Of a DNA stretch of 64,000 bases, positions 4,340-63,026 are shown piece after piece. Within the stretch, counting starts at the first letter, position 1, and every line of letters begins with the position of its first letter. The DNA comes from Lentzea atacamensis. Its GTDB lineage: Bacteria; Actinomycetota; Actinomycetes; Mycobacteriales; Pseudonocardiaceae. The position numbers and the translations under genes were made by a program. The DNA lies in assembly GCF_003269295.1 (NCBI RefSeq), contig NZ_QLTT01000003.1, positions 310,001 through 374,000 of the forward strand, in the 5' to 3' direction. The notes below the pieces were generated by a model. That model did not search any database. It was not told the origin of the DNA and was given only the letters and a program-made list of their open reading frames with translations.

Positions 4340-4369
4340 TCAATTCTGCGGCGGGTCGTCTGGAATCGA

Positions 4370-40500: not shown

Positions 40501-43500
40501 GTCCGCGGACCTGACGAACCCCCGCATCGTCTCCGTCGACACCACGCACAAGTTCTCCACCGCCGAGGTGGTGGAGCACGGCCAGACCGCCGACAGGCAG
40601 AAGGGCAAGGGCATCGAAGTCGGTGCCAGCGCTGTCGACGTGCCTCCGCTCGGCCACAAGTTCGCCAGCCTCATCACGATGGGCAGCGGCGGCGTGAACT
40701 ACATGAGCAAGCAGGGCTCGACCGAGGGCACCGGCGTCAAGGAGTCCGTGGTCCACACGCGAACCGAGCGCGCCTACCTGGTCGAGTTCGACGCGACGTA
40801 CGACCTGCACACCAGCAAACGGCAGCGCTGGCACGACTTCCTCGGCGGTCAGCACGACGGCCGCAGCACTTCGGACGCGATGCGCGTGCACGTGCCGGAC
40901 GCCGCCACGGCGTGGATTCCCGCCAGCGAGATCCACCAGATCGGCCTGCTGCGGGACGCGGACCTCGAACACCTGCTCCCCGAAGAGGTGAAGGCCTACC
41001 GGCGCACGAACGAGGGTGAGACCGATTCCAGTCCGGAACACGGCTCGGACAACGGTTCGGATGCACCAGGTGCGCGCGAGGATCAGGGCTCGCAGCCAGA
41101 AGACGCCGCCCCTGACGTCGCCGCGCCCTCCAACGTGGGCCGTGGCAGCGGCCGGGTGGAGCTGCACCGCCTGGAGGCCGGTAAGGAGCTGCTCTTCCAG
41201 ATCTCCAGCAGGATCGACGAGTGGTCGATCGAGCAGGGCGCCAGGAGCGTTCCCGCTTCGGTGATCGAGCTCGCCCAGGAGGTGCTGACCTCACCTCGGA
41301 CCGACCTCGTGAACCGCGGCGCCGGCGACTTCGGCAGCCTCAACGACCGGCTCCTCAACGACGTGCTCGGGCCTACCCTGACCGGAGCGGAGTTCGGCCC
41401 GGCCCTGCGCAGCATGCTCAACGGCGGCCTGCCGGTCTTCCTGCCCGCCATCAACGTCTTCGGCCGCGTCGAGCAGCTCGTGGTGCTGCGCGCGGACCTC
41501 GGTCCCGGCGAGTTCCACCGCGTCGCCTTCGACGAGACCGTCGAGGCCGAAACGGCGGCAACCCGGTCCTCCGGCTCCTCCAGCGGTTCGGGGTGGGGCG
41601 GGGACTGGGGCATCGGCGCGCAGGCCGGCATGGGCAAGAAGGGCTTGCCCGCCACCGGCTTCGGCCTCTCGATCGGTGGCTTCGGGGAGACCGCGACCAC
41701 TCGCACCGTGACGCACGAGCACGGCGAGACCGTGACCGCGAAGAGGTCCTTGGACGCAGTCGAGTTCCTGCACGACCTGCACGTCACGATGGACGTCTAC
41801 AACTACTCGCGGGCCACCAAGTTCCGCCGCTTCTTCCCCGGCGGCACCTGGTACGAGAAGCCGTGGTCCACCGACTTCACGCTGCCCGCCGCGGTGCGTT
41901 CGGTCGTGCCGAAGGACGAGACGGTTCCGGTCGACGGACAGCAGACGCCCGCGCAGCGGGAGGCCACCGGGTCGCTGAAGGAGTGGCAGCAGGCACAGGA
42001 GCTGCCCGCCGGGTTGAAGGACCAGACGCCGCTGCACGTCCGGTCGTTCGACTCACCCGCGTTGTACGAGGCGCTGGACGTGCTGGCGCGCGGCGACGGT
42101 CCCCGCCCGGTGCTGCACCCGCGCGCGATCCACCAGCTGCAGGCGGCGACCGGGTCCCTGCCGCTGCGGGCGCACATGCGCGACCTGCTCGCCGGCCAGC
42201 CCTACACCGTCAAGATCACGTCGGATGCGGTGCGACAGGTCGACATCACGGCCGACGTGGTGAAGCGGGAGCTGATCGGCCCGGTGCGAACCGAGCTGAC
42301 CACCAAGGTGTCGGACACGGACACCACGAAGGTCAGCACGACCACCAGCGTCCAGACCGGCATGATGCCGGGGGCGGGCGCCAGTGCGGTGCACGTCGAC
42401 AACGCCCAGCAGCGGCCCGGCCTCAACGTGATCGAGAACTTCATGAAGGCGGTCGACTACCAGTCGGCTGCCGACCAGACCGTCAAGACTACGAAGGAGA
42501 CCTCGTCCAAGGACGGCGCCGCGCCGGCGGGCGGGGGCGACGAGCGCTACCTCGTCCGAATCACTCCACAATGGACGATCACGCCCACCTTCCGCAGCTC
42601 GAAGGCACCGGAAGCCTGGACGGAGCCGGTGCACACCGTGCCGGACAGCCCCATCGTCATCGAGACCGACCGTGCCGGTCTCGAACAGCTGGGTCTGGCC
42701 GATCCGGTCGACGCGGGGTCGCGGACCGGCACCGACGCACCGTCGTCCGAGGACGCCCGGCCGAGGAAGTCGCTGATCGACTTCCTGAACGAGCCGATCG
42801 ACGAGGACCTGCCGTCGGTCACGCAGCGCAGGACGATCGCGGACTTCCTGAGCGAGCCACAGGAGGCAAGTCCCGGTCGGGCGGACGAAGCCTCCGACGC
42901 AACGTCGTCCGGTGTCCCGGAGCCGGAGCAGCACCGGTCGCCGGGAAGGCTCGACACGATCGACGAGGGTGACGAGTCCGTCCTTCCCGCTGCGGACAGG
43001 GAAGCGGCGCCCGTTCGCGGCACGGTGGCCGAGCTCGACCGGACGACGTGGATGGACCGGCGGCCGTTCGGGGTGGACCCGAGCGGGGAGATCCGCCACT
43101 TCGAACCGGGTGAGGTGCAGGCCCGGCCGTTGGTGCGCAACGGCCAGGAGATCGGCCTGACCTTCCTGTCCGGCAAGGACGGCGCGCGTTCCCTGAAATG
43201 GGCGCAGGCGCCTGCGGAGTCGCACCTGCGCGGCTACGTGCACCCGGAGACGTCCTCGGCGTTCCCCGGCGTTCGCGGTGCGGAACGGATCGTCTCGCCG
43301 TGGCGGGCCGACTCTACGTACGTCGCGGTGAGTGGCGGGGAGCGCCACTTCGAGCTGCGGCTGGGCGACGGCACACCGCTGCGCGTGGACGGCACGACGT
43401 TCGCCGAGGTGTTGACCGGACTGGACTCGTTCCGCCGGATGTCGGAGGACAACCAGGCCGCGTCGCTGGTCCTGCTGTCCGGTCGCAGCGGGGCCCTCGA

Positions 43501-46500
43501 CGTGCCGGGTGGCGCGGCGCGGGACTTCGAGCGCGGGCTGCGCGACGCCGGGCTGGACCACCTGGTGGTGGCGCCGACGACGGACGTGCACCTGCGCGGC
43601 CCGTTGTTCGGAGGCGCCGGGGCCCTGCTGGACCGCGGCGGCGAGACCGTGCTGGACCGCGGTGGCCGGTGGCGTGCGTTCCCGACGCCGGACGTCATCG
43701 AGAACGCTGTGCTGCCCGCGACGATCGGCGACGGCCGGGTGCCGACCACCTTCCGCACCGGCGACGTCAGGGCCACCGGGATCCAACGCGCGGACGGCAC
43801 GCCGGTCGGTGTCGCCTTCACCGTGGGTCCCGACCTCCGCCACGACGCGGGCACCGTGACGTCCGAGCCGACCGGCACCACGCGCCGCTACGAGGCCGGA
43901 TACCCGACGGAGGAAGGTCTCGACGCCGCCGAGGCGGGAAGCCGGGGCCGCTCCGAAACCGCGCCGTGGCCGGAGAACTCCTCCTACGTCTTCGCACACG
44001 GCGAGGGCGACGCGGTGCACCTCGACCTCGTCGACGGCCGCACCGTCCAGGTCGACGGCGAGACCTTCGGCCGGGTGCTGAACGACCTGAAGGCGTTCCG
44101 TGACGGCACGGCGAACACCGAGGCCCTCACGCTGATCGCCTGCGACACCGGCGTGACTCCCAGGGCTGGAGGCCTGGCGCACGACCTGCAGCGCGCGCTC
44201 GACCAGTTCGGCCACCGCCAGCCCGTCGTCGCGCCGACCCGCCAGGTGGGCACGTGGCAGTGGAACAACGGCACCTGGGAGACGTGGATCGCCGACGCCG
44301 GCACGTGGGAGAGGTTCGCTTCCGGCGAGGCGCGCCAGCTCGGCGTGCGCAACGCGGACGGCGAGTGGACGTCGTTCGCGCCGGCCAACGTGCGGTCCGT
44401 GCCGGTGGTGCGCGACGACGGCAGTGTGGCCGGCGTGTCGTTCCGGCCGGAGGGAGCGGTCACACCGGCGGGACGGGCGTTCGTCGTGGACGTCGAGTCC
44501 ACACCGGACGGATGGCTCACCGTGCGCACCACCGACGGCACGGCGCTGTCGGTCGACGGGCCGACGTTCGCGCGGGTGGTCGCTCAGTCCGAGCCGTTCC
44601 GCACCGCGATGGGCGATGGGGAGCAGGTGCCGCTCGCGCTGGTGCCGTCGACGGCGGCGGAGGTGCCGAGCCAGCGCCAGGCTTTCCAGGACACCCTGCA
44701 GCGGGAGTTCGGCTTCCGCGAGACGGTGTACGAGATGCCGGTCGCGCGCACCGAGACCGAGGCCGTTCCCGGCACGTCGGCGGAGCCTGACGCCGGGCCG
44801 GCGCGGGCCGAGGTGGTGCGGGACGAGGCGGCCGATCTTCCTCCCGAGCGGGTGGAATCGGAGCCGCACGCTGCGGAGAGGGACGGCGGTGAGGGCGAGT
44901 CCCAGCCGAGCCGCACGCCGTCGGGGCTGGAGACGATCGACGAGGGTGACGAGTCCGTCCTGCCCGCCGCGGACCGGGAGGCCGCACCGGTTCGCGGCAC
45001 GGTCGCCGAGCTCGAGCGGATGACCTGGATCGACGAGCGCCTCGCCGGGGTGGACCTGCACGGTGAGATTCGCCGGTTCGAGCCCGGTGAGGTGAGCGTT
45101 CAGGCTTTGGTGCGGCGCGGCCAGGAGATCGGCCTGACGTTCCTGTCCGGCAGTGACGCCACTCGTTCGCTGGAGTGGGGCGAGAAGCCCGCCGCATCGC
45201 ACCTGCGCAGCTACCTGCACCCGGACACCTCCTCGGCCTTCCCGGGCCGCCGCGGCGCCGAGCGGTTCGACTCGCCGTGGCACCCGGACTCGACGTACGT
45301 CGCCGTTCGTGGCAGCGAGACCTCGTTCGAGCTGCGGCTGGCGGACGGCACGCAGGTGCGGGTGGACGGGGCGACCTTCGCCGACGTGCTGACGGGCCTC
45401 GACGCGTTCCGCCGCATGGCGCAGACGAACGCGACCGGTTCGCTGGTGCTGCTGTCGGGACGGACCGGCGCGGTGGACGTGCCAGGCGGCGCTGCGAGGG
45501 ACCTGGAACGCGGGCTGGCCGGCGCCGATTTGGACCACCTCGTGGTGGCGCCGACGACGGACGTGCACCTGCGCACCCCGCGGTTCGGGCGCGGTGGCGA
45601 GCTGGTGCTGGACCGGGGCGGCGCGTGGCGTTCGTTCCCGTTGCCGAACGTGATGGAGAACCTGACGCTGTCGGGGATTCTCGACGACAACTCGCCGGTC
45701 ACGTTCCGCAGCGCCGACGTGCGCACGCGTCCGTTGGTCCGCGCGGACGGCGCCGCGATGGGCCTGGCCTTCATCACCGGCAACGAGCTGACGGTCGCTC
45801 GAGGGATGGAGCAGCACCCCTACCTCGGCAGGACGTTCCACTACGGCGAGGGCTACAACCCGCGCAACGACGGCCGTGACACCCACGGGGAGCCGGTCGG
45901 CCACTACGAGTCGGCGCCGTGGCCGGAACACTCGGCCTACCTCCTCGCGCACGGCGAGCCCGGCACGTTCGACCTGACGCTCACCGATGGCCGCGATGTC
46001 AGGGTCACCGGTGACACCTACGCCCACCTGGTGAACGATCTGCGTCCGTTCCGCGAGCTGATGGTCGAGCGCGAGCCCAGGGGCATCCTGCTGATGTCCT
46101 GCTGGACCGGCAACGTGCCGGCGCCGGGCGGCGCCGCGTTCGACTTCCAGCGCACGCTGGCGCAGCTCGGCCACCCGCAACCGGTGACCGCCCCCACGCG
46201 CCCGTCGGTCATCAGTGGCAATGCTCGCTGGGGCTGGGAGACCAGGGTCACCGACGGCGGAACCTGGGAGCACTTCTCGTCCGGACCCGCGCACCCGCTG
46301 GGTGAGTTCGTCGTGCGCGGCGGCACGTCGTGGGACTCGTTCAAGCCGGCCGAGGTGCGTTCGGAGCCGGTCCTGCGCGACGGCCGCGTGGTCGGCATGT
46401 CGTTCCGCGACGAGGGTGCCGCAGCGCCGGGCTCGGCGTGGGCCGAAGCGGGCGGCACGGACCTGGACGGCGCCGTGCCGCAGCGGTCGTTCGTCGTGGA

Positions 46501-49500
46501 CGTCGAGTCGGCGCCTGACGGCAGGTACGTGCTGCACACCGCCGACGGCGACGTGGCGTTCGTCGATGGTCCGGCGTTCGCGAAGGTGGTCAGCGAGTCC
46601 GAGGTCTTCCGCACCGCGATGGACGCCGAGCACCTCGCGCTCACGCTGGTGACGTCGACGCCGCTGGAAGGGGGACAGGGTGGCGGTTTCCACGACGCCC
46701 TGGTCAGCGAGTTCGGCTTCCGCGAGACGGTGCACGAGCCGCGCGGTGCGGCCGACGTCGTCGTCGGCGAGGACGGGATGCCGGTTCTGCGGACCGAGGA
46801 CGGCTGGACCGTCCACGGCGTGCCTTCCTTCGACGACCTCACGGACACGACGTCCACGCACGGCACGCCCTCGCCGGATCGGGTGCCGTGGGTGGACCAG
46901 CGGCCGCAGGGCGTCGATCCCGCCGGTGAGGTGCGCCGGTTCGAGCCCGGCGAGGTCCAGGTCCGCCCGCTGGTGCGCGGTGAGCAGCAGATCGGCCTGA
47001 CGTTCCTCAGCGGTCGCGAGGAGGCCGGCGCGCTGCGGTGGGCGGCGGCGCCGCAGAGCGAACACCTGCGGGCGTTCATGCACCCGGAGGGGTCGTCGGG
47101 GTTCCCCAGCCGCAGGGGTGCCGAGGAGGTCGCGGCACCGTGGCGGGCGGACTCCATGTACGTCGCGGTGCGCGGTGGCGCGGACGCGTTCGAGCTGCGG
47201 CTGAACGACGGCTCGCGGGTGTCGGTCGACGGCTCGACGTTCGGCCGGGTGATGGCCGACCTGACGCCGTTCCGCCAGCTGACCGACCGCAACGAGGGCG
47301 GTTCGCTGGTGCTGCTGTCCGGCCGGTCGGGCGGTGGCGCGGCACGGGACTTCCAGCAGGCGCTGGCGGACGCCGGCTGGGACCACCTGGTGGTGGCGCC
47401 GACGGCGGACGTGCACCTGCGGACCCCGGCGTGGGGACGCGGTGGTCAGATCGTCGTGGACCGCGGCGGTTCCTGGCAGGCGTTCCCGCTGGCGGACGTG
47501 GTCGAGAACCGGGCGCTGCCCGCCACGAGCAGGGGGCTGCCGACGGAGTTCCGCACGAGCGAGGTGCGGGTCACCGCGCTCAACGGTCCGGACGGCGGTC
47601 CGCTGGCGGTGACGTTCGCGGTCGGGCGGGAGATGCGCGACGACGCGGTGACGCTGTCGCTGCCGCACCGCGGCACGACGTTGCTGCTGCCGGAGGGCGA
47701 CCACGGCCACCAGGCCGGGCGCGACCTGCGGGAGGGCAGGGACGCCTCGCAGCCCGCGCCGTGGCCGGAGCGGTCGGCGTACGTGGTGCCGCACGGCGAT
47801 GCCGACAGCGTGGGCCTGGAGCTGATCGACGGCCGCTCCGTCACGGTGACCGGCGAGGTGTTCGCCGACGTGCTGCAGGACCTGCGGGCGTTCCGGGACC
47901 TGATGGCGGCGCGTGATCCGGACGCGGTGGTCATGCTGTCCTGTGAGACCGGTGCCGTGCGGGGTCCCGGTGGCGTCGCGCGCGACTTCCAGCAGGCACT
48001 GGTGGGCTTCGGGCACCACCAGCCGGTGGTGGCGCCGACGACCGTGGTCACGCTCCACACGTACCACCGGGACGCCTGGGCGACCTACCTCGCCGACGGT
48101 GGCCGCTGGGAGACGTTCTCGTCGGGCGGGGCCTTCCCGCTGGGCAGGCTGGCCGACGAGGCCCGCTGGGTGCCGTTCGAACCCGGTGCGGTGCGATCCG
48201 CGCCGATCCTGCGAGGAGACCGGTCGGTCGGCGTGTCCTTCCACGACGACGGCGGCCGGATCGCGGACGGAGCTGTGCCGGAGCGGGCCTTCGCCGTCGA
48301 GGTCGAGACGAACGCGGACGGTTTGTACGCGGTGCGCACGCCCGACGGTGATCGGGTGTTCGTCGATGGTCCGGTTTTCGCGCGGGTGGTCGGCGAGTCC
48401 GAGGCTTTCCGCGGTGCCGTGGCGGAGCGGGCTCCGCTCGCGCTGGTGACGTCGACGCTGCCCGCCGACGCGGGGCAGGTCCGGGCCTTCCGCGACGCCC
48501 TCGTCAGCGAGTTCGGCTTCCGGGAGACGGTGTTCGAGCGAACCCCGGACGGCTGGACCCCGCACCGCGCCGCGGACGACACCGCCGCATCTGCTCCATC
48601 ACCGGCGCGCACCGGCGATGAAGGCGAGATCACGCTGGCGGATGCCGACGGGCGCAACGTCGCGGACGACGGGGACATCACGCCGTCGGATGACGAGGCC
48701 GGTCAGCTGCGGCCGGACGAGTTCGAGCAGGTTCCCCCACCGCAGGCGCCGCCGTGGGTGGACCGGCGGCCGATGGGCGTCGATCTCCACGGCGAGGTGC
48801 GCCGGTTCGAGCCCGGCGAGGTCCGGGTCAGCCGGATGTGGCGGCGGACCGACCCGTTGGGGCTGTGGAACAACAACCCGGTCGGGCTGACGTTCCTCAG
48901 CGGAGCTGACCGCACCAACTCCCTGAGGTGGGGTGCCGAGCCGAGGAGCACGCACCGCCAGACGTTCGTGCACCCGGAGGGATCGTCCTCGTTCCCGAGC
49001 AGCAAGGGTGCAGCGGAGCAGATGGGCCCGTGGCGCCGGGACGCGATGTACGTCGCGGTGCGCGCCGAGAACGGCACCTTCGAGCTCCGGCTGAAGGACG
49101 GCTCGCGGCTGGGGGTGGACGGCTCGACGTTCGGCCGCGTGACGGCCCAGCTGGACAAGTTCCGGCGGATGGCGAACCACAACGAGAGCGGCACGGTGGT
49201 GCTGCTGGCGGACCGGTCGGGGATGGGCGGCGCGGCTGGGGACTTCCAGCGGGCGCTGGCGACTCAGGGCTGGCACCAGCTCGTGGTGGCGCCGACGACC
49301 GAGGTGCACCTGCGGACGGACTGGCCGGGACGCGGTGGTCAGATCGTCGTGAACCGCGGTGGCTCCTGGCGGGCGTTCCCGGAGGCCGAGGTCGTCAGGA
49401 ACCTGGAGATCGAGGCGGAGACGGGGCACGGGCGTCCGACCACGTTCCGCACCAGTGAGGTGCGGATCACCTCGATCAACGGCCCGGACGGCAGGCCGCA

Positions 49501-52500: not shown

Positions 52501-55500
52501 CCAGGTCGGGGCGCCCCTCAAGGACGCCTGGGACACCGTGGTGACCCGGGGCGGCCGGTGGGAGCAGTTCTCGTCGGGACCGGCCTGGACGCTGGGCGAG
52601 CTGCACGGCGAGGCCAGGTGGATCCCGGTCGAGCCCGCAGAGGTGCGGTCGAGGCCGATCATGCACGGGGACCGGCCGGTCGGGGTGTCGTTCTGGCGGG
52701 ACGGCGAGGGCGGCGCTGTTCCCGGTGACGCGCGGACCATGCCGTTGCCGAAGCGGACGTTCTACGTGTCGGCGGAGTCCGATGCGGACGGCCGCCTCGT
52801 CCTGCACACCCGCGACGGCGCGACGGTGCACCTCGACGGTCCGGCGTTCGCGCGGATCGTGGGCAACAGCGAGACCTTCCGCGGTGTGCGGGACTTCCGG
52901 AGGCTTGGGCCGATCGCACTGGCCGTCTCCACCCCGCTCGGCGGTCAGAGCTGGGGCAAGCACTTCCACCAGGTCCTCAACCGCGAGTTCGGCGTCGAGA
53001 ACCCGGTCCACCAGCCCAGGGGCGCGGCCGGCCTGCGCCGCGGCGAGGACGGCGCTCCGGTCGTGTGGAGCCAGGACGGCTGGACCGTGCACGACCGCAC
53101 CGCCGATGTCCCCGAACTCGTGGTCCGCCACACCACCGGGCCGGACGCGGACGGCGGGCGGATGTCCCGGTCCGGGCCCTCGTCCTCGACGGGGCGGTTG
53201 CACGGTGTGGACACGACCGGTGAGATGCGCCGGTTCGAGCCCGGTGAGGTCCGGGTTCGTCCGTTGACGCACGATGCGGAGCAGATCGGTCTGACCTTCC
53301 TCAGCGGTCGTGATCGCTCGGCTTCGCTGCGGTGGGCCGCTGAACCCAAGAGCGAGCACCTGCGGACGTTCATGCACCCCGAGGGCTCGACGTCGTTCCC
53401 GAGCAGCAAGGGCGCGGCCGAGGTGACGGGTCCGTGGCGCAGGGACGCGATGTACGTCGCGGTCCGGGGTGGCGCGGACTCCTTCGACCTGCGGCTGAGC
53501 GACGGCACGCGCGTGCGGGTGGACGGGCCGACGTTCGGGCACGTGCTGGCCGAGCTGACGCCGTTCCACAAGATGACCGAGAACAACGGGAGCGGCACGC
53601 TGGTGCTGCTCGCCGGCCGTTCGGGCGAGGGTGCGGCGGCGCGGGACTTCCAGCAGGCGTTGGCGGCGCAGGGCTGGGATCACCTGGTGGTGGCGCCGAC
53701 GGCGGACGTGCACCTGCGGACGGCGTGGTTGCAGCGCGGTGGCCAGATCGTCGTGGACCGGGGCGGGTCCTGGCGGGCGTTCCCGCTGCCGGACGTGGTC
53801 GAGGACCTGGTCCTGCCCGCGTCCACGCTGAGGTCGGCGCCGACCGAGTTCCGCACGAGTCAGGTGCGGGTCGCCGCGGTCACCGATCCACAGGGCAAGC
53901 CGCTGGCGATGACGTTCTCGACCGGGGACGAACTGCGCGACGACGTGCGGATGCTGCGTCGCTCGCCCGCCGCCGCCACGTGGCTGTTGCCGGAGGGAGA
54001 CCTCGGCAGGAGGTTCGACCAGGACGCGAACGCCGGCCGGGTCGTCTCGCACCCCGCGCCGTGGCCGCAGCAGTCGGCGTACGTGACCATGCACGGCTTC
54101 GCCAACCACGCGTTCCTGGACCTGAACAACGGCCGTGGGGTCCTGGTGACCGGGGACGTGCTGGCCAAGGTGCTGCACGACCTCCGGCCGTTCCGGGACC
54201 TGATGTCGGCGCGTGAGCAGGAAGCGCTGACCCTGCTGTCCTGCACGACCGGTGCGGTGCGGGCCGCCGGTGGTACGGCGCACGACTTCCAGCGGGCGCT
54301 GGCCGGGCTCGGCCATCACCAGCCGGTGGTGGCGCCCACGAAGAAGGTCGCACTCCACGAGTGGCGCGGCACCAACACCTGGGACACCGTCGTCATCGAC
54401 GGGGGCCGCTGGGAGCAGTTCTCGTCGGGCCCGGCTTCGGCGCTGGGCAGACTGCGTGACGACTCCGGGTGGGTGTCGTTCACCCCGTCCGAGGTGCGTT
54501 CGACGCCAGTGCTTCGTGACGGCCGGTTGGCCGGTGTGTCGTTCCTGGACGAGGGCGCCGTCGTCGCGCACGATGCCGTGCCGCAGCGGGCGTTCGTCGT
54601 GGACGTCGAGCCGGGCGGGACGAACGAGTTCGTGGTGCGGACCGCCCGCGGCGACTCGGTGTTCGTCGACGGCCGGGTGCTCGCGAGGGTGGTCGGCGAG
54701 TCCGAGGCGTTCCGCGGTGCGGAGCAGGCACCCGTCGCGCTGGCGCTGTCGAGGCCGCTGGACGGGTCGGGGCAGGTCCGCGGGTTCCACGAGACGTTGA
54801 TCCGCGACTACGGCTTCCGTGAGTCGGTGTTCGAGCCGCGCCGTGACGGCTGGGCCGAGTACCGCGTCGCCCGCCAGGAACCGGCCGACGGCGTGACGCC
54901 GCACGCCGATGCCGAGCCCGCGGGGTCGGTGGACGGTGCGCGGGTGAAGGCACCGGTACAAGGGCAGTCTGGGGCTGGGCAGAGCGGTGCTGGGCGGACA
55001 GTGACCGGGCCGGACACCGACCGCGATCTCTCGGTGTCCTCCTCCACGCCGGAACGCGCGTCGTCGACCGGCCGGCCGCTGCACGGCGTGGACCCGGCCG
55101 GCGAGGTGCGGCGGTTCGAGGCCGGCGATGTGTTGGCGACCCCGTTGCTTCGCGGCCTCAAGATCGTCGGCCTGACGTTCGTCCACGGCGGCGGGTTCTA
55201 CGAGTCCGTGCGGTGGGGCAGCGAGCCACGCGCACAGCACCTGCGGACGTTCACGAACCCGGAGTCGTTCCCGAGCAGCAAGGGTGCTGAGCCGACCGCG
55301 TCGCCGTGGCGCAAGGACGCGATGTACGTCGTGGTGCGCGGCGGAGAGGACTCGTTCGAGCTGCAGCTCAGGGGCGGCTCCGCGGTGCGGGTGGACGGGT
55401 CGACGTTCGGGCGGGTGATGTCCCAGCTCGACGACTTCCACAGGATTACCCGAAGCAACGACAGCGGGTCTCTGGTGCTGCTTGCCGGTCGGTCGGCGGC

Positions 55501-58500
55501 GGCTGACGCGGCCAGGGACTTCCAGCAGGCGCTGGCTGCCGCCGGCTGGGACCACCTGGTGGTGGCGCCGACTGCGGACGTGCACCTGCGCACGGCGTGG
55601 TTGAAGCGCGGCGGCCAGCTCGTCATGGACCGCGGTGGTGAGTGGCGGACGTTCCCGGCGCCGGACGTGGTCGAAGGGCTGGAGGTGCACGGACGCATCA
55701 CCAGGGGGTGGAGCGCGGAGTCGATCCGGTTTCTCACGAGCGATGTGCGCGTGGGCGTGCTGCGCGGTCCGGCTGGTGCCCCGATGGGAGTGTCCTTCAT
55801 GGTCGGCCGCGAAGGGCACTTCTTCGCGACGGAAATGGCGACGCCGCACGCGGGGACCACGTTCCAGGTTCCGGAAGGGCAGCCGCGCGCGGAGCGGGAG
55901 GTGCGCGCGGGCCGGGGCAGTTCCCTGGTCGCGCCGTGGCCGGAGCGGTCTGCCTATGTCGTCGCGCACGGCACCCCCTCCTCCGTGACGCTCAATCTCG
56001 TCGATGGGCGTGAGGTCGTCGTGCGTGGTCCGGCGCTGGCGACGGTGCTGCACGACCTGCGCCCGTTCCGGGAGCTGATGGCCGCGCACGATCCGGAGGC
56101 GCTCCTGCTGTTGTCATGCACGACCGCCCTGCTGCCGGGCACGGGCGGCGTCGCCCACGACTTCCAGCGGGCGCTGGCCGACGTCGGCTACCGCCAGCCC
56201 GTGGTCGCACCGACGACCAAGACCGGTGTGCACACGTTCCGCGGCGACGGGGCGTGGGAGAGTTTCCTGCTCGATGGCGGCACTTGGCGGCACTTCAGCC
56301 CGGCACCGGCGCTGATGCTGGGCAAGCTGCCGAACGAGCCCCGGTGGACCTCCTTCGACCCGGCGGGCGTGCGGTCGGAAGGCCTGGTGCGGGGAGACAC
56401 GACGGTCGGTGTGTCGTTCCGGCGGGACGGCGGCGGCTGGCCGGCCGGCACGGACCACCGCGCGGTCCAGGGGCTGGAGCTGCCGAAGCGGACGTTCTTC
56501 GTGGTGGCCGACTCGGATGCCGAGGGCCTGTTCGTCGTGCACACCGCCGACGGTGGAACGTTGCACGTCAACGGCACGGGGTTCGCGCGGCTGGTCGCCG
56601 AGACCAACCAGTTCGCCGTCAGGGACTTCCGGTACGACTCCGCGCCGATCGTGCTGATCACGCCGGCGCCGCTGAACGCCCCGAGCCAGGGCCGGTCGTT
56701 CCACCTCGCCCTGGCCAACGAGTTCGACGCCCCCGGCCCGCACTACGTGCCCAGGGGCCCGGTGCACGTGTCCGGCGACGGCCGGACCCCGGTCATCCGG
56801 TCCGAGCACGGCTGGACCCTCCACGACCGCTGGCTCGACGGTCCCCAGGACATCGGTCAGCTCGCGGCTCAGCCCGCCGCCCAGCTGGCCGGCGCTCGTG
56901 GCGGCCGGTCGGTCCTGCTGCCCGGCGGTCGCGAGCAGTTCACGCTGGCCCCGGCCGCGCACGGCCGCGGACGCCTGAACGGTGTGGACCCGACTGGCAG
57001 GGTGCGCCGGTTCGAGCCGGGCGACGTCGAGGCCCAGCCGATGCGGCACGGCGAGCAGCAGATCGGTCTGTCGTTCCTCGGTGGCCGGGAGCTGCCCAAG
57101 TCGTTGCTGTGGGCCGTCGAGCCCGGCAGTGAGCACCAGCGGACCTTCGTGCACCCGGAGAGCTCGTCCCGGTTCCCGAGCAGCAGGGGCGCGGCGGAGA
57201 TCGCGTCGCCGTGGGGCGCCGACGCGATGTACCTCGCCGCGCGTGGTGCGGAGAACTCCTTCGAGCTGCGGCTGACCGACGGCACGCCGGTGAGGGTGGA
57301 CGGAAGGACGTTCGGGCGCGCGCTGTCGGGGATCGAGGCGTTCCGCCGGATGGCTGCCGACAACGAGGGAGGCCAGCTGGTGCTGCTCGCCGGCCGGACC
57401 GGCGCCGGTGCGGCGGCCGGTGACCTCCAGCGGGCGCTCGCGGCCATCGGCTGGCACCAGCAGGTGGTGGCGCCGACGAGCGATGTGCACCTGCGGACCG
57501 CCCTGTTCCAGCAGGGCGGCCAGCTCGTGCTCGATCGAGGTGGGGCGTGGCGGGCGTTCCCGGTGGCGGACGTGGTCGCCGGGCAGAACCTGGAGGTGGT
57601 CGCCCACGCCGGAACGACCCGGTTCCACACGAGTGAGGTGCGGGCGACCGTGCTCACCGGACCGCGCGGTGTCCCGGCGGGCGTCACCTTCCTGGTCGGG
57701 CGGGAGCTGAACGAACACGCGGACTGGATGGCACGTCCCCACGGCGGGACGACGACCCACGTGGCGCCGGGCGAGGACCTGCCCACGCGAGTGGCACAGG
57801 ACCTGCGGGAAGGCCGGGGCGGCACCACTTCACCGTGGCCGGCGCGGTCGGTCCACATCATCACTCACGGCACTCCGCACGCCGTCTGGATCCAGCTGGC
57901 CGACGGCCGTTCGATCACGGTCAGCGGCGACGTGCTGGCCGCCGTGCTGCACGACCTGCGGCCGTTCCGGGACCTGATGGCCCGGCTCGAGCCGGACGCG
58001 GTGACGCTGATGGCGTGCCGGACGGGCAGCGAACGCGGTCGTGGCGCTGCGGCGGACGACTTCCAACGGGCACTGGCCGGGCTCGGCTACCGGCAGCCGG
58101 TGGTCGCGCCGACGACCCGCGTCGGATTCTCCGTGTTCCGCGACGGCATCGCGTGGCAGAACTACCTGGTCGATGGCGGCCGGTGGGAGCAGTTCTCGTC
58201 GGGCCCGGCACAGGTGCTGGGGCGGGTGGCAGGCGACGTCCGGTGGATCGCGTTCGATCCGGCCGCGGTGCGGTCCGAGCTGTGGCCGCACGGCGAAACG
58301 CAGATCGGTGTGTCGTTCCGGGCGGAACTCCCGACCGTGACGCACAGCGAGGTGCAGGGTGAACCGTTGCGCCGGCGCGCGTTCCGCGTCGCAGTGGAGT
58401 CCGATGTGGACGGTTCGCTGGTGGTGCGCACGGCTGGCGGCGTGCGCGTGCACGTCGACGGTGACACCTTCGCCAGGGTGCTGGGGCAGACCGCCGGGTT

Positions 58501-61500
58501 CGTGGACCCGAGCGGCTCCAGGTGGCCGGGTGCGATCGCGTTGATCACCTCTGGCGGACCGGTCGACGGCGCCGCCTTCCAGCGGACGCTGCTCCGCGAG
58601 TTCGCCGTCCGAGGTCCGGTGCACGAGGCCGGGGGCGCGGTGCACCTGCTCGACGGTGGTGAGCAGGTGGTGGCCGAGAACGGCTGGACCACGCACGGGC
58701 GCGAGCCCAGGCCCGCGCGGGAGGTCATCCACTTCACCCCGCCGTCGTTGCGGAACGAGCGCGCCGACGGGACGCTGGGTCGCGACGACGTGTCCGACCA
58801 GGACGCGCGGCTGGCCGCGTGGTTCGACGCGGCTGACCGCAGGGCGGAGGCGCGGCTGGCCGCCGAGCAGGACGCGCGGCAGGTCGCCGAGCAGACCGAG
58901 GCGCCCGCTGACCAGGTGGCGACGGCCGAGCGCGGTGCCGCCCTCAAGTCCGGTCGTTCCTGGTTGAAGCGCGTCTTCGGCCGGGAGACGGTGATGGCGG
59001 GCCTGGACGCGGCGACCGGTGAAGCGCGGACGTTCCGCCGCCGTGACGTCGTGGCGCACACGCTGATGTCGGACGGCCGCACGGTCGGTGTGACGTTCCG
59101 CAGCGGACCGGATCGGGTCGCGGTGCCGGTCACGGCGGCGCAGGGCAGGGTCTTCCACATCGATGCCGATGCGAGCGCGTCCAGGTTCGGCCTGATGTTG
59201 AAGGACGGCTCGCGCGTCACGGTCGACGGCGGGGTGCTGGCCGAGGTGGTCGCGAAGGCCAAGCCGTTCCGGACGGCGCAGACGCTCGCCGGTGTCGCCC
59301 TGCCGGGTGCGAACGCGGGCGTGCTCGGTCACGCCGGCGGTGCGGCGCACGACTTCCAGCGCGGCCTGGCCGTGTTCGGCAGGGACACCGCTGTGGTGGC
59401 CGAGGAAGGGCATGGCCGGTGGCGCGGGTTCGGTGGCGCCGTGGCGGGCGTCGAGGACAGTGGCCGGGTGCGGTTGTTCGGCGCGGCCGAGGTGCCGGTT
59501 CAGCCGGTGCGTGACGGCGACACCGTCGTGGGCGTGTCGTTCCGTGGTACGGCGGACGAGTCGATGCGCGCACCCGGCGCCGACTCCGCCGTGGTGGCGG
59601 TGGAGAACCGGCTCGACCGGTTCCAGGTGACTTTGGCCGACGGAACGAAGGTGTCGCTGGGTGGTTCGGCGTTCGCGGACGTGCTGGTGTCCACGTCGTT
59701 GTTCGGCGAGGCAAGGGAGAACCGCGGTGGCGAGGTCGCGCTGCTGGCGTCACGAGCCGGTGCGTCGGGCTGGCGTGGCGGCGCGGCCCGCGACTTCCAG
59801 GTCGCGCTGAGCGACCGGCTCGGTGTGGAGACCAAGGTGGTGGCGCCCGCCGGCGACCTGACGGCGCACGTGGACGGACTGGCGGGCATCGCCGAGGACG
59901 TCGAGGCCGAGACGTTCGATCCCGGCTGGCGGATGTTCCCCGCCGTGCCGCTGGACCGCCCGGTCCAGGCGGGCCACTTCGAGCGGGGCGAAATCCTCGA
60001 CGTCACCCCCGCGGACGTGCAGGCCGTGCCGCTGGTCGAGGACGGGCGGGTCATCGGGGTCACGTTCAGCGTGGACGGCGACGGCCTGGACACCGCGCTG
60101 TCGTGGGCGGCGGCCGACGGCAAGGACACCACCTCCGTGCTGCCGCGGGACGTCGGCCTGAACGCGGACACCATGGCGCGCGCACTCGACGCGCAGCCGG
60201 GTCGCGCGCCGTGGCCGGAGAACACGTTCTTCGTCATCGGGCACAGCTTCGCTTCCGGTGACACGTCCGGCTTCCGCGTCCACGACCGCGAAGGCGCGGC
60301 GCTGTCGCTGTACGGGTACCAGTTCGCCGATCTGGTGCGGCGGCTGGAGCCGTTCCAGGAGCGGATGAGCGGCCCCGGCCGCCCGGAGGCGATCGCGCTG
60401 ATCGTCTGCACGGTCGGTGACGACCGGCCCGGCACCGCCGCCCACGACTTCCAGCAGGCGCTGTCGACCGCCTTCGAGGTCGACGTGCCGGTGATCGCGC
60501 CCACCGACTCCGTCTACATCGGACTGCGGGACGGCCGCGCGGCCACCGCGCTGGAGCACGGCGGCACGTGGCTCGCGTTCTCCGGCGGCTACGGGCAGGT
60601 GCTCGGCACCGACGGCCAGGGCAGGCACATCGCGTTCGCGCCTGAGGAAGTCCGGTCGCAGACCGTCCGCGACGGGAACCGCCCGACGGGTTTGTCCTTT
60701 GTGGATGGAAACGGGCAGGCGGATCCGGCGAAGTGGCCCGCCGGTGCGATCGGCTTGGACGTGGCGGCGTCCGGTGATCGCTTCTCGGTCACGCTGACCG
60801 ACGGCAGGACGGTCACGGTCGACGGCCGCGCGCTGGCGAAGCTGGTGATGGCGTCCCCGGCGTTCCGCGAGGCCGCCGGGGCACAACGGCCGACGGCGTT
60901 CATGGTGTCCGCGGGTTCCGAGCAGGGCGTCAGCGCGTTCCAGCGCACCGTGGCCCGCAGCTTCGGTCTCGACGTGCCCGCAGTGGTGCAGCGCGGTGGC
61001 GAGTGGACCGCGCACGCCGAACCGGCGCAGTTCGCCGGAACCAGCGCGGACGGCAGGGTGGAGCTCTTCGCCCGGCCCGCCGTGGTGCTGGAGCACAGCG
61101 CCGCCGGAGTGTCGTTCACCGGCGACCCGCTGCCCGGCGGCGGTGCGCCGGACGAGTTCCGCGTCGCCGTCTCCGGTACCCACGACCGCTTCGACCTGCG
61201 GCTGACCGACGGCCGCCAGGTCACCGTGTCCGGCAGGGTCCTGGCCGACCTCGTGCACGGCACCGGCGTTCCGATCGGCGAGCGCATCACCCTGCTCGGT
61301 TCGGCGGCCGGCGAGCTCGACGCACCCGGTGGCGCCGCCCACGACTTCCAGCGCGCCCTCGCGCGCCGGTTCGAGGTGTGGCAGCCGGTGTCGGCGGCGA
61401 CCCAGGACGGCACCCTCCGCACGTTCCAGACCCTCGACACGCTGCCCCGGCCCCTGTCGGGCATCGAGCTCCCGTCCGGCGACGGGGGCCGCCGCCCGAT

Positions 61501-62146
61501 CACGTTCCAACCGGGCACGATCTCCGCGGCCCCGCTGCGGCACGGCGACCAGGTCGTCGGCGTCACGTTCCGCACCGGCGAGAAACGCCTCGGCGCCGAG
61601 GCGTGGGCCACTGCGGGCACCGGCACGACCCATCTGCTCGGGGCCGACCAGTTCGACCTCACCGAAGCCGGTGCTGCTCGCCCGTCGCCGGCGCCGTGGC
61701 CCGCCCGCACCTTCCACGTCGACGTCGAGGAGTACATCGCCGCCGACATGCTGGTCGAGACCCAGAACGGCCGCAGGGTCGTGGTCGACGCCGGCACGCT
61801 GGCCGCGATCGTCGCCCGCTCGGAGCCGTTCCAGCAGGCCTACGGCGGCGCACCCGAGGCTGTCACCCTGCTCGCGTCCAACGCCGGCGCGCCCGGTGGC
61901 GCGGTGGAAGCCTTCCAGCGCGCGTTGCACGAGCAGTTCGGCCGCACCGAGCCCGTTTACGCGCCGACCAACGAGCTTGAGCTGCTGGTGGCGGGCACCG
62001 TGGTGCACGACGCGGGGGAGTGGCGGCGCGTGGAGGTCTCGCCGGTCGACGACCTCGTGGACGCCGTGAGCGACGTGGAGACAGCGCGCCCCATGTCCCT
62101 CGCCGACTTCCTCGGCGGCACGCCGCCACGCGACGAGAACCGGTGA
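34505..62146 (+). CDS. Giant T7SS substrate, 9213 residues, lonely-Cys-type repeat protein
   Basis: One uninterrupted 27.6-kb frame from GTG 34505 (GAGGAAGAG upstream). Residues 1-135 are a WXG/CpnT-like helical domain; hydrophobic and Gly-rich segments fill about 105-300. Residues 425-879 are a Thr/Pro/Gly hexapeptide minisatellite; 880-1170 a charged linker; about 1220-2720 six beta-rich segments; 2856-9185 about 31 modules of roughly 200 residues in triplets. Nine modules keep His-Gly and, 48-55 residues on, Cys: H3165/C3213, H3816/C3866, H4430/C4480, H5063/C5113, H5914/C5964, H6530/C6580, H7155/C7205, H7788/C7838, H8580/C8635. I find no other Cys. There is no recognisable C-terminal toxin domain. 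The WXG-type start, missing signal peptide and neighbours indicate ESX export. Function unknown; a clan-CD-like peptidase array is my hypothesis. Confidence 0.9.
35777..37141 (+). repeat. 18-bp minisatellite coding a T-G-T-T-P-T/A repeat
   Basis: About 76 in-frame tandem copies of an 18-bp unit (ACGGGTACCACGCCGACG and close variants) encode TGTTPT or TGTTPA. GGT/GGC, ACC/ACG and CCG/CCC wobble changes define sub-blocks. A disturbed block at 36476-36640 brings [12 protein letters not shown] and TGATP. The peptide should be an extended, possibly O-glycosylated stalk between the N-terminal domain and the rest of the protein. Confidence 0.95.
38160..42680 (+). repeat. Six beta-rich segments of the giant protein
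   Basis: Between the linker and the module array I see six related-looking segments, at about 38160-38650, 38880-39300, 39605-40000, 40420-40920, 41430-41910 and 42190-42670. Each has a strand, a Thr/Lys-rich stretch (often with a glycine-rich hairpin such as [14 protein letters not shown] or [11 protein letters not shown]), then a strand like YLVEF or YLVRI, a basic turn and a closing strand ending V-VPD/VP. Helical spacers separate them. Similarity is at pattern level only. Confidence 0.5.
43070..45046 (+). repeat. Giant-protein super-repeat 1 (A-B-C modules)
   Basis: About 659 residues from the [15 protein letters not shown] opening. Module A has SG and GR where His-Gly and Cys would be ([16 protein letters not shown], exactly 50 residues apart). 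Module B has H3165 and C3213 ([17 protein letters not shown]). Module C has neither (FVVDVES, LALVPST). It is followed by a linker almost identical to the one before it. Confidence 0.85.
45047..46909 (+). repeat. Giant-protein super-repeat 2 (A-B-C modules)
   Basis: About 621 residues. A: YVAVRGSE and LLSGRTG. B: H3816 and C3866 ([16 protein letters not shown]). C: FVVDVESA and LTLVTSTP, ending in an [15 protein letters not shown] element that recurs in later repeats. Confidence 0.85.
46910..48775 (+). repeat. Giant-protein super-repeat 3 (A-B-C modules)
   Basis: About 622 residues, including a 45-residue acidic linker at the end. A: YVAVRGGA and LLSGRSG. B: H4430 and C4480 ([16 protein letters not shown]). 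C: FAVEVET and LALVTST. Confidence 0.85.
48776..50605 (+). repeat. Giant-protein super-repeat 4 (A-B-C modules, MWR variant)
   Basis: About 610 residues. The A module carries an insertion, [18 protein letters not shown], shared only with repeats 5 and 6. A: YVAVRAEN and LLADRSG. B: H5063 and C5113 ([17 protein letters not shown]). C: VHVSAES and LALVVSTP. Confidence 0.85.
50606..51355 (+). repeat. Giant-protein super-repeat 5, orphan A module
   Basis: Only 250 residues: a single A module of the MWR type ([16 protein letters not shown]), followed directly by a linker and the next A module. B and C are absent, so this unit has no His/Cys pair. It looks like a product of unequal recombination. 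Confidence 0.85.
51356..53203 (+). repeat. Giant-protein super-repeat 6 (A-B-C modules, MWR variant)
   Basis: About 616 residues. A: YVAVRGGE and LLAGRSG, aligning without gaps to B over the 50 residues. B: H5914 and C5964 ([17 protein letters not shown]). C: FYVSAES and LAVSTP. The closing [10 protein letters not shown] linker matches the one before this repeat. Confidence 0.85.
53204..55084 (+). repeat. Giant-protein super-repeat 7 (A-B-C modules)
   Basis: About 627 residues. A: YVAVRGGA and LLAGRSG. B: H6530 and C6580 ([17 protein letters not shown]). C: FVVDVEPG and LALSRPL, then a polar linker with SGAGQSGAG. Confidence 0.85.
55085..56980 (+). repeat. Giant-protein super-repeat 8 (A-B-C modules)
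   Basis: About 632 residues. A: YVVVRGGE and LLAGRSA. B: H7155 and C7205 ([17 protein letters not shown]). C: FFVVADSD and IVLITPA. Confidence 0.85.
56981..58735 (+). repeat. Giant-protein super-repeat 9 (A-B-C modules)
   Basis: About 585 residues, then a charged helical linker to 58999 rich in Ala/Glu/Arg. A: YLAARGAE and LLAGRTG. B: H7788 and C7838 ([17 protein letters not shown]). C: FRVAVESD and ALITSGG. Confidence 0.85.
59000..62059 (+). repeat. Giant-protein super-repeat 10, divergent six-module block
   Basis: About 1020 residues with six recognisable modules, less alike than those upstream. Only the third keeps the pair, as H8580 and C8635 ([16 protein letters not shown]; spacing 55). 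The others read [32 protein letters not shown] and FHVDVEEY at the His position. The block runs almost to the C-terminus. Confidence 0.8.
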
Positions 62147-62315
62147 GGACTACAGTCGGTGGTCACCTCCGCGCGGGCGTGGCCAGGACTTCCGTGAGTG
62201 ATTCCCCCGGAGGTTGCCGCCCGGCGCACCAGGAGGCTCCACCGGCTCCCGATGGGTTCCTTGAATGGACACGCACGAGAAGCAACACGACGAGCACATC
62301 GGCCGGGAGGCTGTG

Positions 62316-63026
62316 ATGGCGGAGACCGCCACGACGACCGAGCAGACCGAAGCCCGGTTCGAGGGTGACCAGTGGGTGTTCCTGATCGACCCGGCCTGGC
62401 AGGCGGAGCAACCGGAGCCCGCCGAGGGCGAAGAGCGCCCGCGGCCGCCTCTCGAGGTGGTCGTCGGCGGGTGGTTCGTCGAGCAGGACGGCACCACCAG
62501 CCGCTTCCACGCCAACCCCGACTACCTGCCGACGCGGCCGGATTCGCCGACCGACCCGGTGGACGCGACGCTGCAGATGGTCACGCGTGGCGAGGCCGAG
62601 CCGGGTGAGCTGCTGTCGATCATGACCGAGGGCAGCGTCTTCGGGCTCGCCGTGACCGAGGAGAACACCCCGGTCGTGGTGATGTCGCCGGACGAGGTGC
62701 CGTGCGTCGTGGTCGCCACGGCTCCCGCGCACAGCCGGCGCATCGCGGAGATCAAGGAGCTCGACAACATCGCGGCCTGGGCCGAGGTCAGCCTGGAGCA
62801 GCTCGTCGGCCTGCTGCCGGAGGAGGGCGTCGACGTGCTGCTCAACGCGGGCGCACCCGCGTCGATGCGGCTGATCGCCGCCGCGCTCCGCCAGGCCCTC
62901 GCCGAGGCTCCCAAGCCCGAAGCCGCCGCGCCCGAGGGCGAAGCCGCAGACGGCCGTCCGGCCACCGAGGCGGAGGCGCCGAAGTCCCGGGCCAAGAAGG
63001 CCAAGCCCGAGGCCGCCGCGGGCTGA
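62316..63026 (+). CDS. Type VII secretion system-associated accessory protein
   Basis: A 236-residue acidic soluble protein. ATG 62316 is chosen because GGGAGG lies 5 bp upstream; an in-frame ATG at 62265 has none. Residues 15-60 form a beta-rich part (QWVFLIDPAWQ, EVVVGGWFVEQDG). Residues 75-140 resemble an SseB-type fold (DATLQMVTRG, LLSIMTEGSVFGLAV, VVVMSPDEVPCVVV). The tail is Ala/Pro/Glu/Lys-rich and disordered. From memory, RefSeq describes a T7SS-associated family found next to lonely-Cys giants, and this fits. It is probably a cytosolic chaperone or escort for the giant substrate encoded 169 bp upstream. Confidence 0.75.
   Translation: MAETATTTEQTEARFEGDQWVFLIDPAWQAEQPEPAEGEERPRPPLEVVVGGWFVEQDGTTSRFHANPDYLPTRPDSPTDPVDATLQMVTRGEAEPGELLSIMTEGSVFGLAVTEENTPVVVMSPDEVPCVVVATAPAHSRRIAEIKELDNIAAWAEVSLEQLVGLLPEEGVDVLLNAGAPASMRLIAAALRQALAEAPKPEAAAPEGEAADGRPATEAEAPKSRAKKAKPEAAAG

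What the first reader, a model, noticed from the sequence alone, without database searches (positions are those of the whole stretch)
43070..62146. Nine His-Gly/Cys modules in one T7SS substrate: a possible clan-CD-like peptidase array
Seen: nine modules each show a hydrophobic strand ending in His-Gly (YVTLHG, YVNMHG, YVVAHG; the last is IGHS) and, 48, 50 (seven times) and 55 residues later, a second strand ending in Ser/Ala/Val-Cys (LTLVSC, VTLMAC, LIVC). Known: clan CD cysteine peptidases (caspases, gingipains, the C80 toxin-processing domains) have hydrophobic-HG and hydrophobic-x-Cys motifs with comparable spacing, about 40-50 in caspases and C80. Inferred: the modules could be self-cleaving or substrate-cleaving peptidases strung in one exported chain. 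From memory RefSeq calls this type the lonely Cys domain with no function assigned.
Basis: partly seen in the sequence, partly recalled or inferred. Interest (0 to 1): 0.95.

Follow-up and report, generated by a model that had tools for sequence, protein, structure and literature searches.

The report
Giant protein with thirty-one caspase-like modules
A soil bacterium encodes a 9,213-residue, probably exported protein, about two thirds of it 31 copies of a protease-like domain, only nine of which keep the catalytic pair, and those nine hold every cysteine in the protein.

Summary
The 9,213-aa frame (34505-62146) has nine modules with His then Cys 48, 50 (seven times) and 55 residues apart. Those nine Cys are the protein's only Cys. 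A profile of the nine finds 31 tandem copies, mostly inactive-active-inactive triplets; 22 lack both residues. Over 146 copies in nine frames, 45 have both, 4 His alone, 0 Cys alone. Two confident AlphaFold models (pLDDT 91.6, 91.4) each have MARTX C80 peptidase domains as best six PDB matches, but TM-scores are low (0.30-0.38) and no E-value is under 0.001. A profile search finds the same family, covering only the Cys half. Clan CD, C80-like, is well supported; activity and self-cleavage are inferred. Caspase-like arrays with dead copies were described in 2012 (PMC3482391), and NCBI names a 'lonely Cys' family. Added here: the link between them, a triplet plan with no recognised toxin domain after the array, and a linker motif that also ends seven related arrays, though not the module-rich frames of G246 or G176.

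The parts
34505..62146 (+). giant frame, 9,213 aa, GTG start; T7SS-type exported protein carrying the array
   Evidence: all 29 module matches in this genome lie in this frame
34550..34894 (+). WXG100-like N-terminal domain (aa 16-130)
   Evidence: Pfam PF25547 WXG100_2, E 8.3e-16, 58.7 bits over cut-off 27
35768..37132 (+). Thr/Pro/Gly repeat linker (about aa 422-876, [12 protein letters not shown] units)
   Evidence: read from the translation; limits approximate
38042..42754 (+). region of unknown kind before the array (aa 1180-2750), rich in Gly/Ser/Thr stretches
   Evidence: no Pfam family above cut-off in the pieces scanned; conserved in relatives at 30-86% identity
42770..42787 (+). S/T-L/I-x-D/E/Q-F-L motif, copy 1, in the linker before the array (SLIDFL)
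42833..42850 (+). motif copy 2, in the linker before the array (TIADFL)
62096..62113 (+). motif copy 3, at the C-terminus (SLADFL)
43295..43690 (+). module 1, A type, no dyad (S/G)
   Evidence: profile match
43961..44329 (+). module 2, B1, dyad His3165/Cys3213
44459..44734 (+). module 3, C type, no dyad (E/S)
45272..45640 (+). module 4, A type, no dyad (R/G)
45914..46291 (+). module 5, B2, dyad His3816/Cys3866
46469..46828 (+). module 6, C type, no dyad (E/S)
47135..47494 (+). module 7, A type, no dyad (R/G)
47756..48127 (+). module 8, B3, dyad His4430/Cys4480
48269..48589 (+). module 9, C type, no dyad (E/S)
49025..49390 (+). module 10, A type, no dyad (R/D)
49655..50029 (+). module 11, B4, dyad His5063/Cys5113
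50192..50554 (+). module 12, C type, no dyad (E/S)
50852..51211 (+). module 13, A type, extra copy, no dyad (R/N)
51602..51964 (+). module 14, A type, no dyad (R/G)
52208..52585 (+). module 15, B5, dyad His5914/Cys5964; modelled
52739..53095 (+). module 16, C type, no dyad (E/S)
53429..53788 (+). module 17, A type, no dyad (R/G)
54056..54436 (+). module 18, B6, dyad His6530/Cys6580
54572..54898 (+). module 19, C type, no dyad (E/S)
55301..55663 (+). module 20, A type, no dyad (R/G)
55931..56308 (+). module 21, B7, dyad His7155/Cys7205
56474..56824 (+). module 22, C type, no dyad (D/P)
57206..57568 (+). module 23, A type, no dyad (R/G)
57830..58210 (+). module 24, B8, dyad His7788/Cys7838
58361..58702 (+). 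module 25, C type, no dyad (E/S)
59132..59488 (+). module 26, divergent, no dyad (D/A)
59567..59944 (+). module 27, divergent, no dyad (E/S)
60206..60589 (+). module 28, B9, dyad His8580/Cys8635 (IGHS); modelled
60728..61075 (+). module 29, divergent, no dyad (A/G)
61136..61429 (+). module 30, divergent, no dyad (S/S)
61691..62041 (+). module 31, divergent, no dyad (E/S); the protein ends 34 residues after it
62265..63026 (+). downstream gene, 253 aa, T7SS-associated protein; homologue next to the giant gene in 12 of 19 genomes compared
   Evidence: NCBIfam NF033532 lone7para_assoc, 138.4 bits over cut-off 85
33703..34173 (+). YbaB-like gene upstream
   Evidence: Pfam PF02575, 23.3 bits, just under cut-off 25.5; homologues just upstream in L046 and L050
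34166..34468 (+). small WXG-like gene just upstream (label by position and size; no Pfam hit over cut-off)
   Evidence: homologues just upstream in L046 and L050
28182..28508 (+). WXG100 protein
   Evidence: Pfam PF06013, 38.9 bits over 27.3
28565..28858 (+). WXG100 protein
   Evidence: Pfam PF06013, 51.7 bits over 27.3
26664..28097 (+). EccB, T7SS core
   Evidence: Pfam PF05108, E 3e-100
25234..26664 (+). EccD with YukD domain, T7SS core
   Evidence: Pfam PF19053, E 3.8e-77, and PF08817

Best explanation
The last 6,250 or so residues of a giant type VII secretion substrate are 31 tandem copies of one clan CD domain of the C80 kind (the autoprocessing domain of MARTX toxins). Shown: the copies are homologous; nine keep a His and a Cys at the expected places in the sequence, each just after a strand in the predicted structures of two of them; 22 have lost both residues; and the protein has no other cysteine. 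Inferred: the nine are working cysteine peptidases that cut their own chain, in cis or between neighbours, after export or on arrival, most of them flanked by two dead copies that hold or present substrate. The most likely purpose is staged release of array pieces, or of the whole array from the N-terminal export part. Candidate sites are the flexible linkers. The S/T-L-x-D/E/Q-F-L motif before the array and at the C-terminus is one candidate, because C80 enzymes cut after Leu.
For: Exact nine-module observation. 31 copies in one frame, the weakest at domain E 6.4e-5. His/Cys coupling: 45 both, 4 His only, 0 Cys only, 97 neither (five of these with a gap at one column) of 146; 29 both, 16 neither, 4 His only, 1 Cys only, 7 with a gap, of 57 in 20 further frames. 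Dyad Cys among all Cys: 9 of 9, 9 of 9, 6 of 6, 3 of 3, 3 of 3 and 5 of 7 in six array frames, against 26 Cys in 4,586 residues of nine other ORFs of the window. Models with pLDDT 91.6 and 91.4 put His and Cys each just after a strand. Best six Foldseek hits all C80 in both models. PDB profile hits, C80 first. Pfam C80 in 18 of 44 dyad modules (from nine frames) against 0 of 22 dyad-less window copies. Dyad modules form one clade, support 0.978. Dyad and dead modules are similarly constrained, median dN/dS 0.39 and 0.38. C80 dyad 49 apart, P1 Leu (PMC4357240 passages).
Against: Foldseek TM-scores are low (0.30-0.38 for the six C80 hits), rmsd 4.7-10.1 A, no E-value under 0.001. The PDB profile match and B9's Pfam match cover the Cys half and not the His. 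B9's Pfam C80 score, 16.9, is under the curated 23.8, and the pieces with B1, B2 and B5 have no C80 match at E up to 1. The best CHAT match (3.3e-5) is as good as the best C80 match (4.2e-5). The His-Cys distance could not be measured. No cleavage is shown by any result. Apart from the modules there is little in the array to release, and no recognised toxin domain follows it. Lone-Cys proteins are not the rule throughout: G246 has 22 Cys for 8 dyads, and frames of G101, G086 and G125 have 12, 10 and 9 Cys for one dyad each. Four of 49 modules with His in nine frames and four of 33 in the others lack the Cys.
Confidence: 0.6

Rival explanations
1. The nine modules are active peptidases, but their job is to cut proteins of a rival or host cell: the array is itself the toxin, a multi-headed protease, not a self-processing device.
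For: No recognised toxin domain follows the array; the protein ends 34 residues after the last module. PMC3482391 says caspase-like domains that are the C-terminal-most domain are taken as toxins (passages).
Against: Most heads have two dead partners and sit far inside a chain, which does not favour access to large foreign substrates. The motif in linkers and tails points to something within the chain. No substrate is known.
Confidence: 0.25
2. The modules form covalent bonds rather than break them: the Cys makes an acyl-enzyme and acts as a ligase that anchors the giant chain, as some clan CD enzymes (legumain-type ligases, GPI transamidase; recalled) do.
For: Same fold and dyad would serve; a long exported repeat chain looks like a surface fibre. 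Nothing in the calls tests this.
Against: Best structural and sequence matches are to hydrolytic C80 domains. No anchor motif was looked for.
Confidence: 0.08
3. The array is a structural or peptide-binding stalk; the dyad modules are relics or bind without cutting.
For: 22 of 31 copies are dead, and dead and dyad modules have similar dN/dS, 0.38 and 0.39. PMC3482391 suggests such a role for dead repeats (passages).
Against: His and Cys are mostly kept together and lost together. In five relatives' frames of 4,597 to 5,032 residues the only Cys is this one.
Confidence: 0.12
4. The modules belong to the CHAT or DUF4347 branch of clan CD rather than near C80.
For: Pfam CHAT matches 2 of 44 dyad modules, best 3.3e-5, slightly better than the best C80 match; DUF4347 matches 1 of 44.
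Against: C80 matches 18 of 44 and heads PDB sequence and structure searches.
Confidence: 0.15

Closest known systems
Caspase-like repeat arrays in actinobacterial polymorphic toxins (Zhang et al. 2012, PMC3482391; passages seen)
   Same: Arrays of caspase-like domains, some without catalytic residues, in toxins; caspase toxins delivered by T7SS among other routes; multiple self-cleavage events proposed there.
   Different: There the array precedes a C-terminal toxin domain; here nothing recognised follows it. The passages seen name no triplet plan, no lone-Cys pattern and no linker motif. I saw passages and one figure legend, not the whole text, figures or supplements.
NCBIfam NF012197 lonely_Cys domain
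   Same: 29 of 44 dyad modules match it at E up to 1, best 1.4e-8. In G403, whose two domains pass its cut-off, the one Cys of each long piece lies 47 residues after an HG.
   Different: The window protein scores 35.8 bits against a cut-off of 200; one 707-position domain there, many short modules here.
MEROPS C80 / Pfam PF11713, MARTX and large clostridial toxin cysteine protease domain
   Same: Dyad order and spacing (49 in C80, 48-55 here), best structure and profile matches.
   Different: 31 copies in a row here; one processing domain per toxin there (recalled). Activator pocket and Leu specificity untested. B9 is under the Pfam cut-off.
CPDadh family (Pei et al. 2009)
   Same: A wider set of putative peptidases related to the C80 domain (one sentence and the reference in PMC2900308). 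PMC3482391 mentions such domains in large surface proteins; that its reference is this paper I did not check.
   Different: Paper not held. Overlap with these modules not tested.

Membership tests
Clan CD cysteine peptidases | His before Cys in sequence, each at the end of a strand (PMC4357240) | tested here: met
   B5 model: strand 89-93 then His95, strand 139-143 then Cys145. B9 model: strand 75-79 then His81, strand 130-134 then Cys136. Predicted secondary structure only.
Clan CD cysteine peptidases | Those two strands are core strands 3 and 4 of one sheet, with His and Cys close enough to act as a dyad | not testable with these tools
   No coordinates were returned; the second aligner was absent.
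C80 (Pfam PF11713) | Score over the curated cut-off | tested here: not met
   16.9 of 23.8 bits for the piece holding B9; pieces holding B1, B2 and B5 have no match. For 44 dyad modules only E-values were listed, best 4.2e-5.
C80 (Pfam PF11713) | Fold match to solved C80 domains | tested here: inconclusive
   Best six hits in two models, probability 0.91-1.00, but TM 0.30-0.38 and E 1.6e-3 to 2.1e-2.
C80 (Pfam PF11713) | Beta-flap between strands 5 and 6 and an inositol hexakisphosphate pocket | not testable with these tools
   Short strands follow in both models, but their place in space is unknown.
C80 (Pfam PF11713) | Strict Leu at P1 | not testable with these tools
   Residues at -1 of His and Cys are uncharged in 74 of 74 dyad modules; this does not test specificity.
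NCBIfam lonely_Cys NF012197 | Score over the curated cut-off of 200 bits | tested here: not met
   35.8 bits, E 9.5e-9, in this genome.
Caspase-array polymorphic toxins (PMC3482391) | Array of caspase-like repeats, some without catalytic residues | tested here: met
   31 copies, 9 with the dyad.
Caspase-array polymorphic toxins (PMC3482391) | C-terminal toxin domain after the array | tested here: not met
   Only 34 residues follow the last module; no Pfam family above cut-off in aa 8480-9213.
T7SS (WXG100-type) substrate | WXG100-like N-terminus and T7SS genes nearby | tested here: met
   Export itself not tested.

The most novel reading that the evidence does not exclude
The protein is a self-cutting protease polymer: each inactive-active-inactive triplet is one enzyme with two substrate-holding arms, and the array frees itself by cutting after the last Leu of S/T-L-x-D/E/Q-F-L motifs that bracket it. 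The 'lonely Cys' of giant T7SS proteins would then be a catalytic residue kept free of all other thiols by selection, and the motif a release signal shared by this subgroup.
Probability: 0.13. Interest if true: 0.8.

Novelty: new variant of a known kind. Interest (0 to 1): 0.55.

Why it matters
NCBI carries a 'lonely Cys' family, and a search of the held paper library for that name found no paper. The results here give that Cys a likely role: the catalytic residue of a C80-like peptidase. That makes an unexplained family testable with a single purified module. If self-cleavage is confirmed, it would show how some very large bacterial proteins (open frames of 9,000 to 28,000 residues) are taken apart after export, and what dead protease copies are for.

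Tried and rejected
Caspase (C14) and gingipain as closest relatives: neither is among the 50 Foldseek hits listed (of 399) for the B5 model, and only a weak MALT1 hit (probability 0.08) is among the 50 listed (of 402) for B9. CHAT as closest: 2 of 44 modules against 18 of 44 for C80, though its best E-value is as good. The downstream gene as an inhibitor of the peptidases: 45 of 48 module-bearing genomes have it, but so do 51 of the other 249, and it is a known T7SS-associated family, so export partner is the simpler reading. Searching A1 in genome contigs failed for lack of a conserved stretch; the narrower A2 found only two Lentzea contigs. One search read the wrong strand for L085-L087 and L090 (and L089, not followed); those rows are discarded, its Cys baseline for window ORFs is kept, and one search repeated the search on both strands for four of the five. 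Pfam scans of most of the non-array parts of G109 and G140 gave nothing at E up to 0.01. No toxin family above its cut-off was found in the ten pieces of the window protein scanned; aa 331-879, 4111-5579 and 6211-8059 were not in those pieces. The third Foldseek job was not used.

Full report
What is there. The + strand frame 34505-62146 starts with GTG and codes for 9,213 residues without a stop. All 29 module matches that a search of this genome scored as significant lie in it (150 of 180 candidates scored). Its N-terminus is WXG100-like (Pfam WXG100_2, E 8.3e-16, over cut-off). Upstream lie EccD, EccB, two WXG100 proteins and a gene that matches YbaB just under the cut-off. So it is very probably a type VII secretion substrate. 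The genus is probably Lentzea: G282, placed in the same genus, has a contig of the same number of bases as the Lentzea aerocolonigenes contig L043; this is inference.

The observation. The protein has nine Cys in all, and each is the Cys of one of these modules. Nine other ORFs of the window have 26 Cys in 4,586 residues; at that rate about 52 would be expected here.

Thirty-one copies. A profile made from the nine modules finds 31 copies in the protein, the weakest with a domain E-value of 6.4e-5. From N to C the order is eight A-B-C triplets with one extra A, then six copies of a divergent stretch, of which one (B9) has the dyad. All nine B copies have His and Cys; none of the other 22 has either. 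In a tree of the 31, the nine form one clade with support 0.978; the nine A copies and the eight C copies also group (their supports were not printed), so whole triplets were multiplied (midpoint root, one method).

Coupling of His and Cys across relatives. In nine frames (this one and eight from relatives) 146 copies were aligned: 45 have both, 4 have His only, none has Cys only, 97 have neither, five of those 97 with a gap at one of the two columns. A Fisher test gives 2e-33, but copies are related by duplication, so this is not a true probability. In 20 more frames, 57 copies: 29 both, 16 neither, 4 His only, 1 Cys only, 7 with a gap at one column. In six array frames the dyad Cys are 9 of 9, 9 of 9, 6 of 6, 3 of 3, 3 of 3 and 5 of 7 of all Cys; in the three other frames they are 8 of 22 (G246, 28,302 residues), 1 of 2 (G171) and 1 of 3 (G225, part of its frame). 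Of the 20 further frames, 7 have exactly one Cys: five of 4,597 to 5,032 residues with that Cys in a dyad module, a 597-residue frame with a dyad, and a 6,666-residue piece whose His column is a gap. The other 13 have 2 to 12 Cys, for instance 12, 10 and 9 in G101, G086 and G125 with one dyad each. So the lone-Cys rule is strong in the close array group and in many, not all, of the others.

Fold. AlphaFold models of B5 (aa 5820-6035) and B9 (aa 8500-8701), each with an alignment of 62 modules from the window and two Lentzea contigs, have mean pLDDT 91.6 and 91.4 and pTM 0.88 and 0.89. In both, His and Cys each follow a strand within two residues, with short strands and two helices between them. 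In both, the six best PDB matches are C80 domains of Vibrio MARTX toxins, probability 0.91 to 1.00. Against this: E-values are 1.6e-3 to 2.1e-2, none under 0.001; TM-scores are 0.30 to 0.38; rmsd is 4.7 to 10.1 A. The local pattern matches; a close global match was not shown. The finer aligner was not available.

Sequence evidence for C80. A profile of 44 dyad modules (44 of the 45; one lay across a piece boundary) finds chains with the MARTX C80 domain as its four best PDB hits, E 0.0016, 0.0038, 0.0042 and 0.15. In the three alignments shown the catalytic Cys is in register, but the match starts after the His. With the nine window modules alone the best hit is the same family at E 0.33. Pfam C80 matches 18 of the 44 at E up to 1, best 4.2e-5; CHAT matches 2, best 3.3e-5; B5 itself matches neither. 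Of the 22 dyad-less window copies none matches C80. B9's own piece scores 16.9 bits, below the Pfam cut-off of 23.8, again over the Cys half; the pieces with B1, B2 and B5 show no C80 match. So the modules are C80-like by several weak, agreeing lines, but do not pass as members.

The lonely Cys family. NF012197 (lonely_Cys, 707 positions) matches 29 of 44 dyad modules at E up to 1, best 1.4e-8; B5 has 28.9 bits against a cut-off of 200, and the best stretch in this genome 35.8 bits. Two domains of G403 that pass the cut-off lie in overlapping pieces of 1,406 and 1,706 residues, each with a single Cys, 47 residues after an HG. So the lone Cys of that family appears to be the same dyad Cys. No paper in the library holds 'lonely Cys'.

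A motif in linkers and tails. S/T-L/I/V-x-D/E/Q-F-L occurs 11 times in six array frames against 0.4 expected from shuffles (sum of six means); all 11 lie outside modules. It stands at the C-terminus of the five of those frames that have a true end, and of two more fetched afterwards as a check, G290 and G158. These last two look like close kin of G156 and G109, so they are weak extra tests. It is absent from the ends of other frames with several modules: G246 with 22 copies, and G176 with 9, G275 with 3, G161 and G276 with 2 each. So it belongs to a subgroup. In this protein two copies precede the array and one ends the chain. I noticed the motif first and then defined the pattern, so the shuffle figure is after the fact, and the frames are related. 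C80 enzymes cut after Leu (PMC4357240, passages), which makes it a candidate cut site; it could as well be a docking or export signal. Of the 20 frames one (G273) has the pattern, inside the chain.

Partner gene. The 253-aa gene at 62265 is NF033532 (lone7para_assoc, over cut-off). Among 19 genomes represented in the 27 pieces compared, homologues lie next to the giant gene in 12; in six of the other seven the end of the frame was not in the piece, and G276 has the end but no homologue there. In the family sample 45 of 48 module-bearing genomes have it, and 51 of 249 others.

Spread. Module matches: 48 of 297 genomes of the family, this one included; 4 of 396 in a phylum-wide sample, this one included. 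Only 13 and 10 candidates per genome were scored in those calls, so copy numbers there are lower bounds.

Selection. For 23 reciprocal-best module pairs with L. aerocolonigenes, median dN/dS is 0.39 for 6 dyad modules and 0.38 for 17 others, range 0.14 to 0.93. Some pairs are not at matching places in the two arrays. Both kinds seem kept; neither is decaying freely.

Prior knowledge. Zhang et al. 2012 (PMC3482391; passages and one figure legend seen, not the whole text or supplements) already describe arrays of caspase-like repeats in such toxins, with a Streptomyces example, some copies without catalytic residues, and propose multiple self-cleavage. What I did not find there, in the passages seen, is the lone-Cys rule, the triplet plan, an array with no toxin after it, or the motif.

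Verdict. Real, well above chance, and a new variant of a known kind. Clan CD is likely; peptidase activity is probable; self-cleavage is the best guess and untested.

Noticed in passing
genome G246, contig C2, 2648274-2733179 (L056-L060): An open frame of 28,302 residues with 22 module copies (8 with dyad) and T7SS-associated genes shortly after it; by length among the largest bacterial frames I know of (recalled).
   Followed up: partly
window 38042-42754 (aa 1180-2750): A region with about five Gly/Ser/Thr-rich stretches (read by eye), no Pfam family above cut-off in the pieces scanned, conserved in relatives and apparently present more than once in G156 and G109.
   Followed up: no
window 35768-37132: About 450 residues of TTPTTG-type repeats between the N-terminal domain and the rest.
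   Followed up: no
L086 (genome G424), aa 872 of the frame read: A second Cys in a GDCLFRAL context, which recalls OTU-type cysteine peptidases (recalled motif); relatives may carry further enzyme domains.
   Followed up: no
L098/L099 (genome G158): The array lies in several shorter frames (1402, 717, 603 residues) rather than one; broken gene or assembly errors.
   Followed up: no
window 29328-31988: An 886-aa Gly-rich protein with a short C-terminal stretch conserved in L046 and L050 and no Pfam family at E up to 0.01.
   Followed up: no
window 42780 (- strand): The motif pattern also appears antisense to motif copy 1, in a 229-codon frame; probably a mirror effect of the codons, not a gene.
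   Followed up: no
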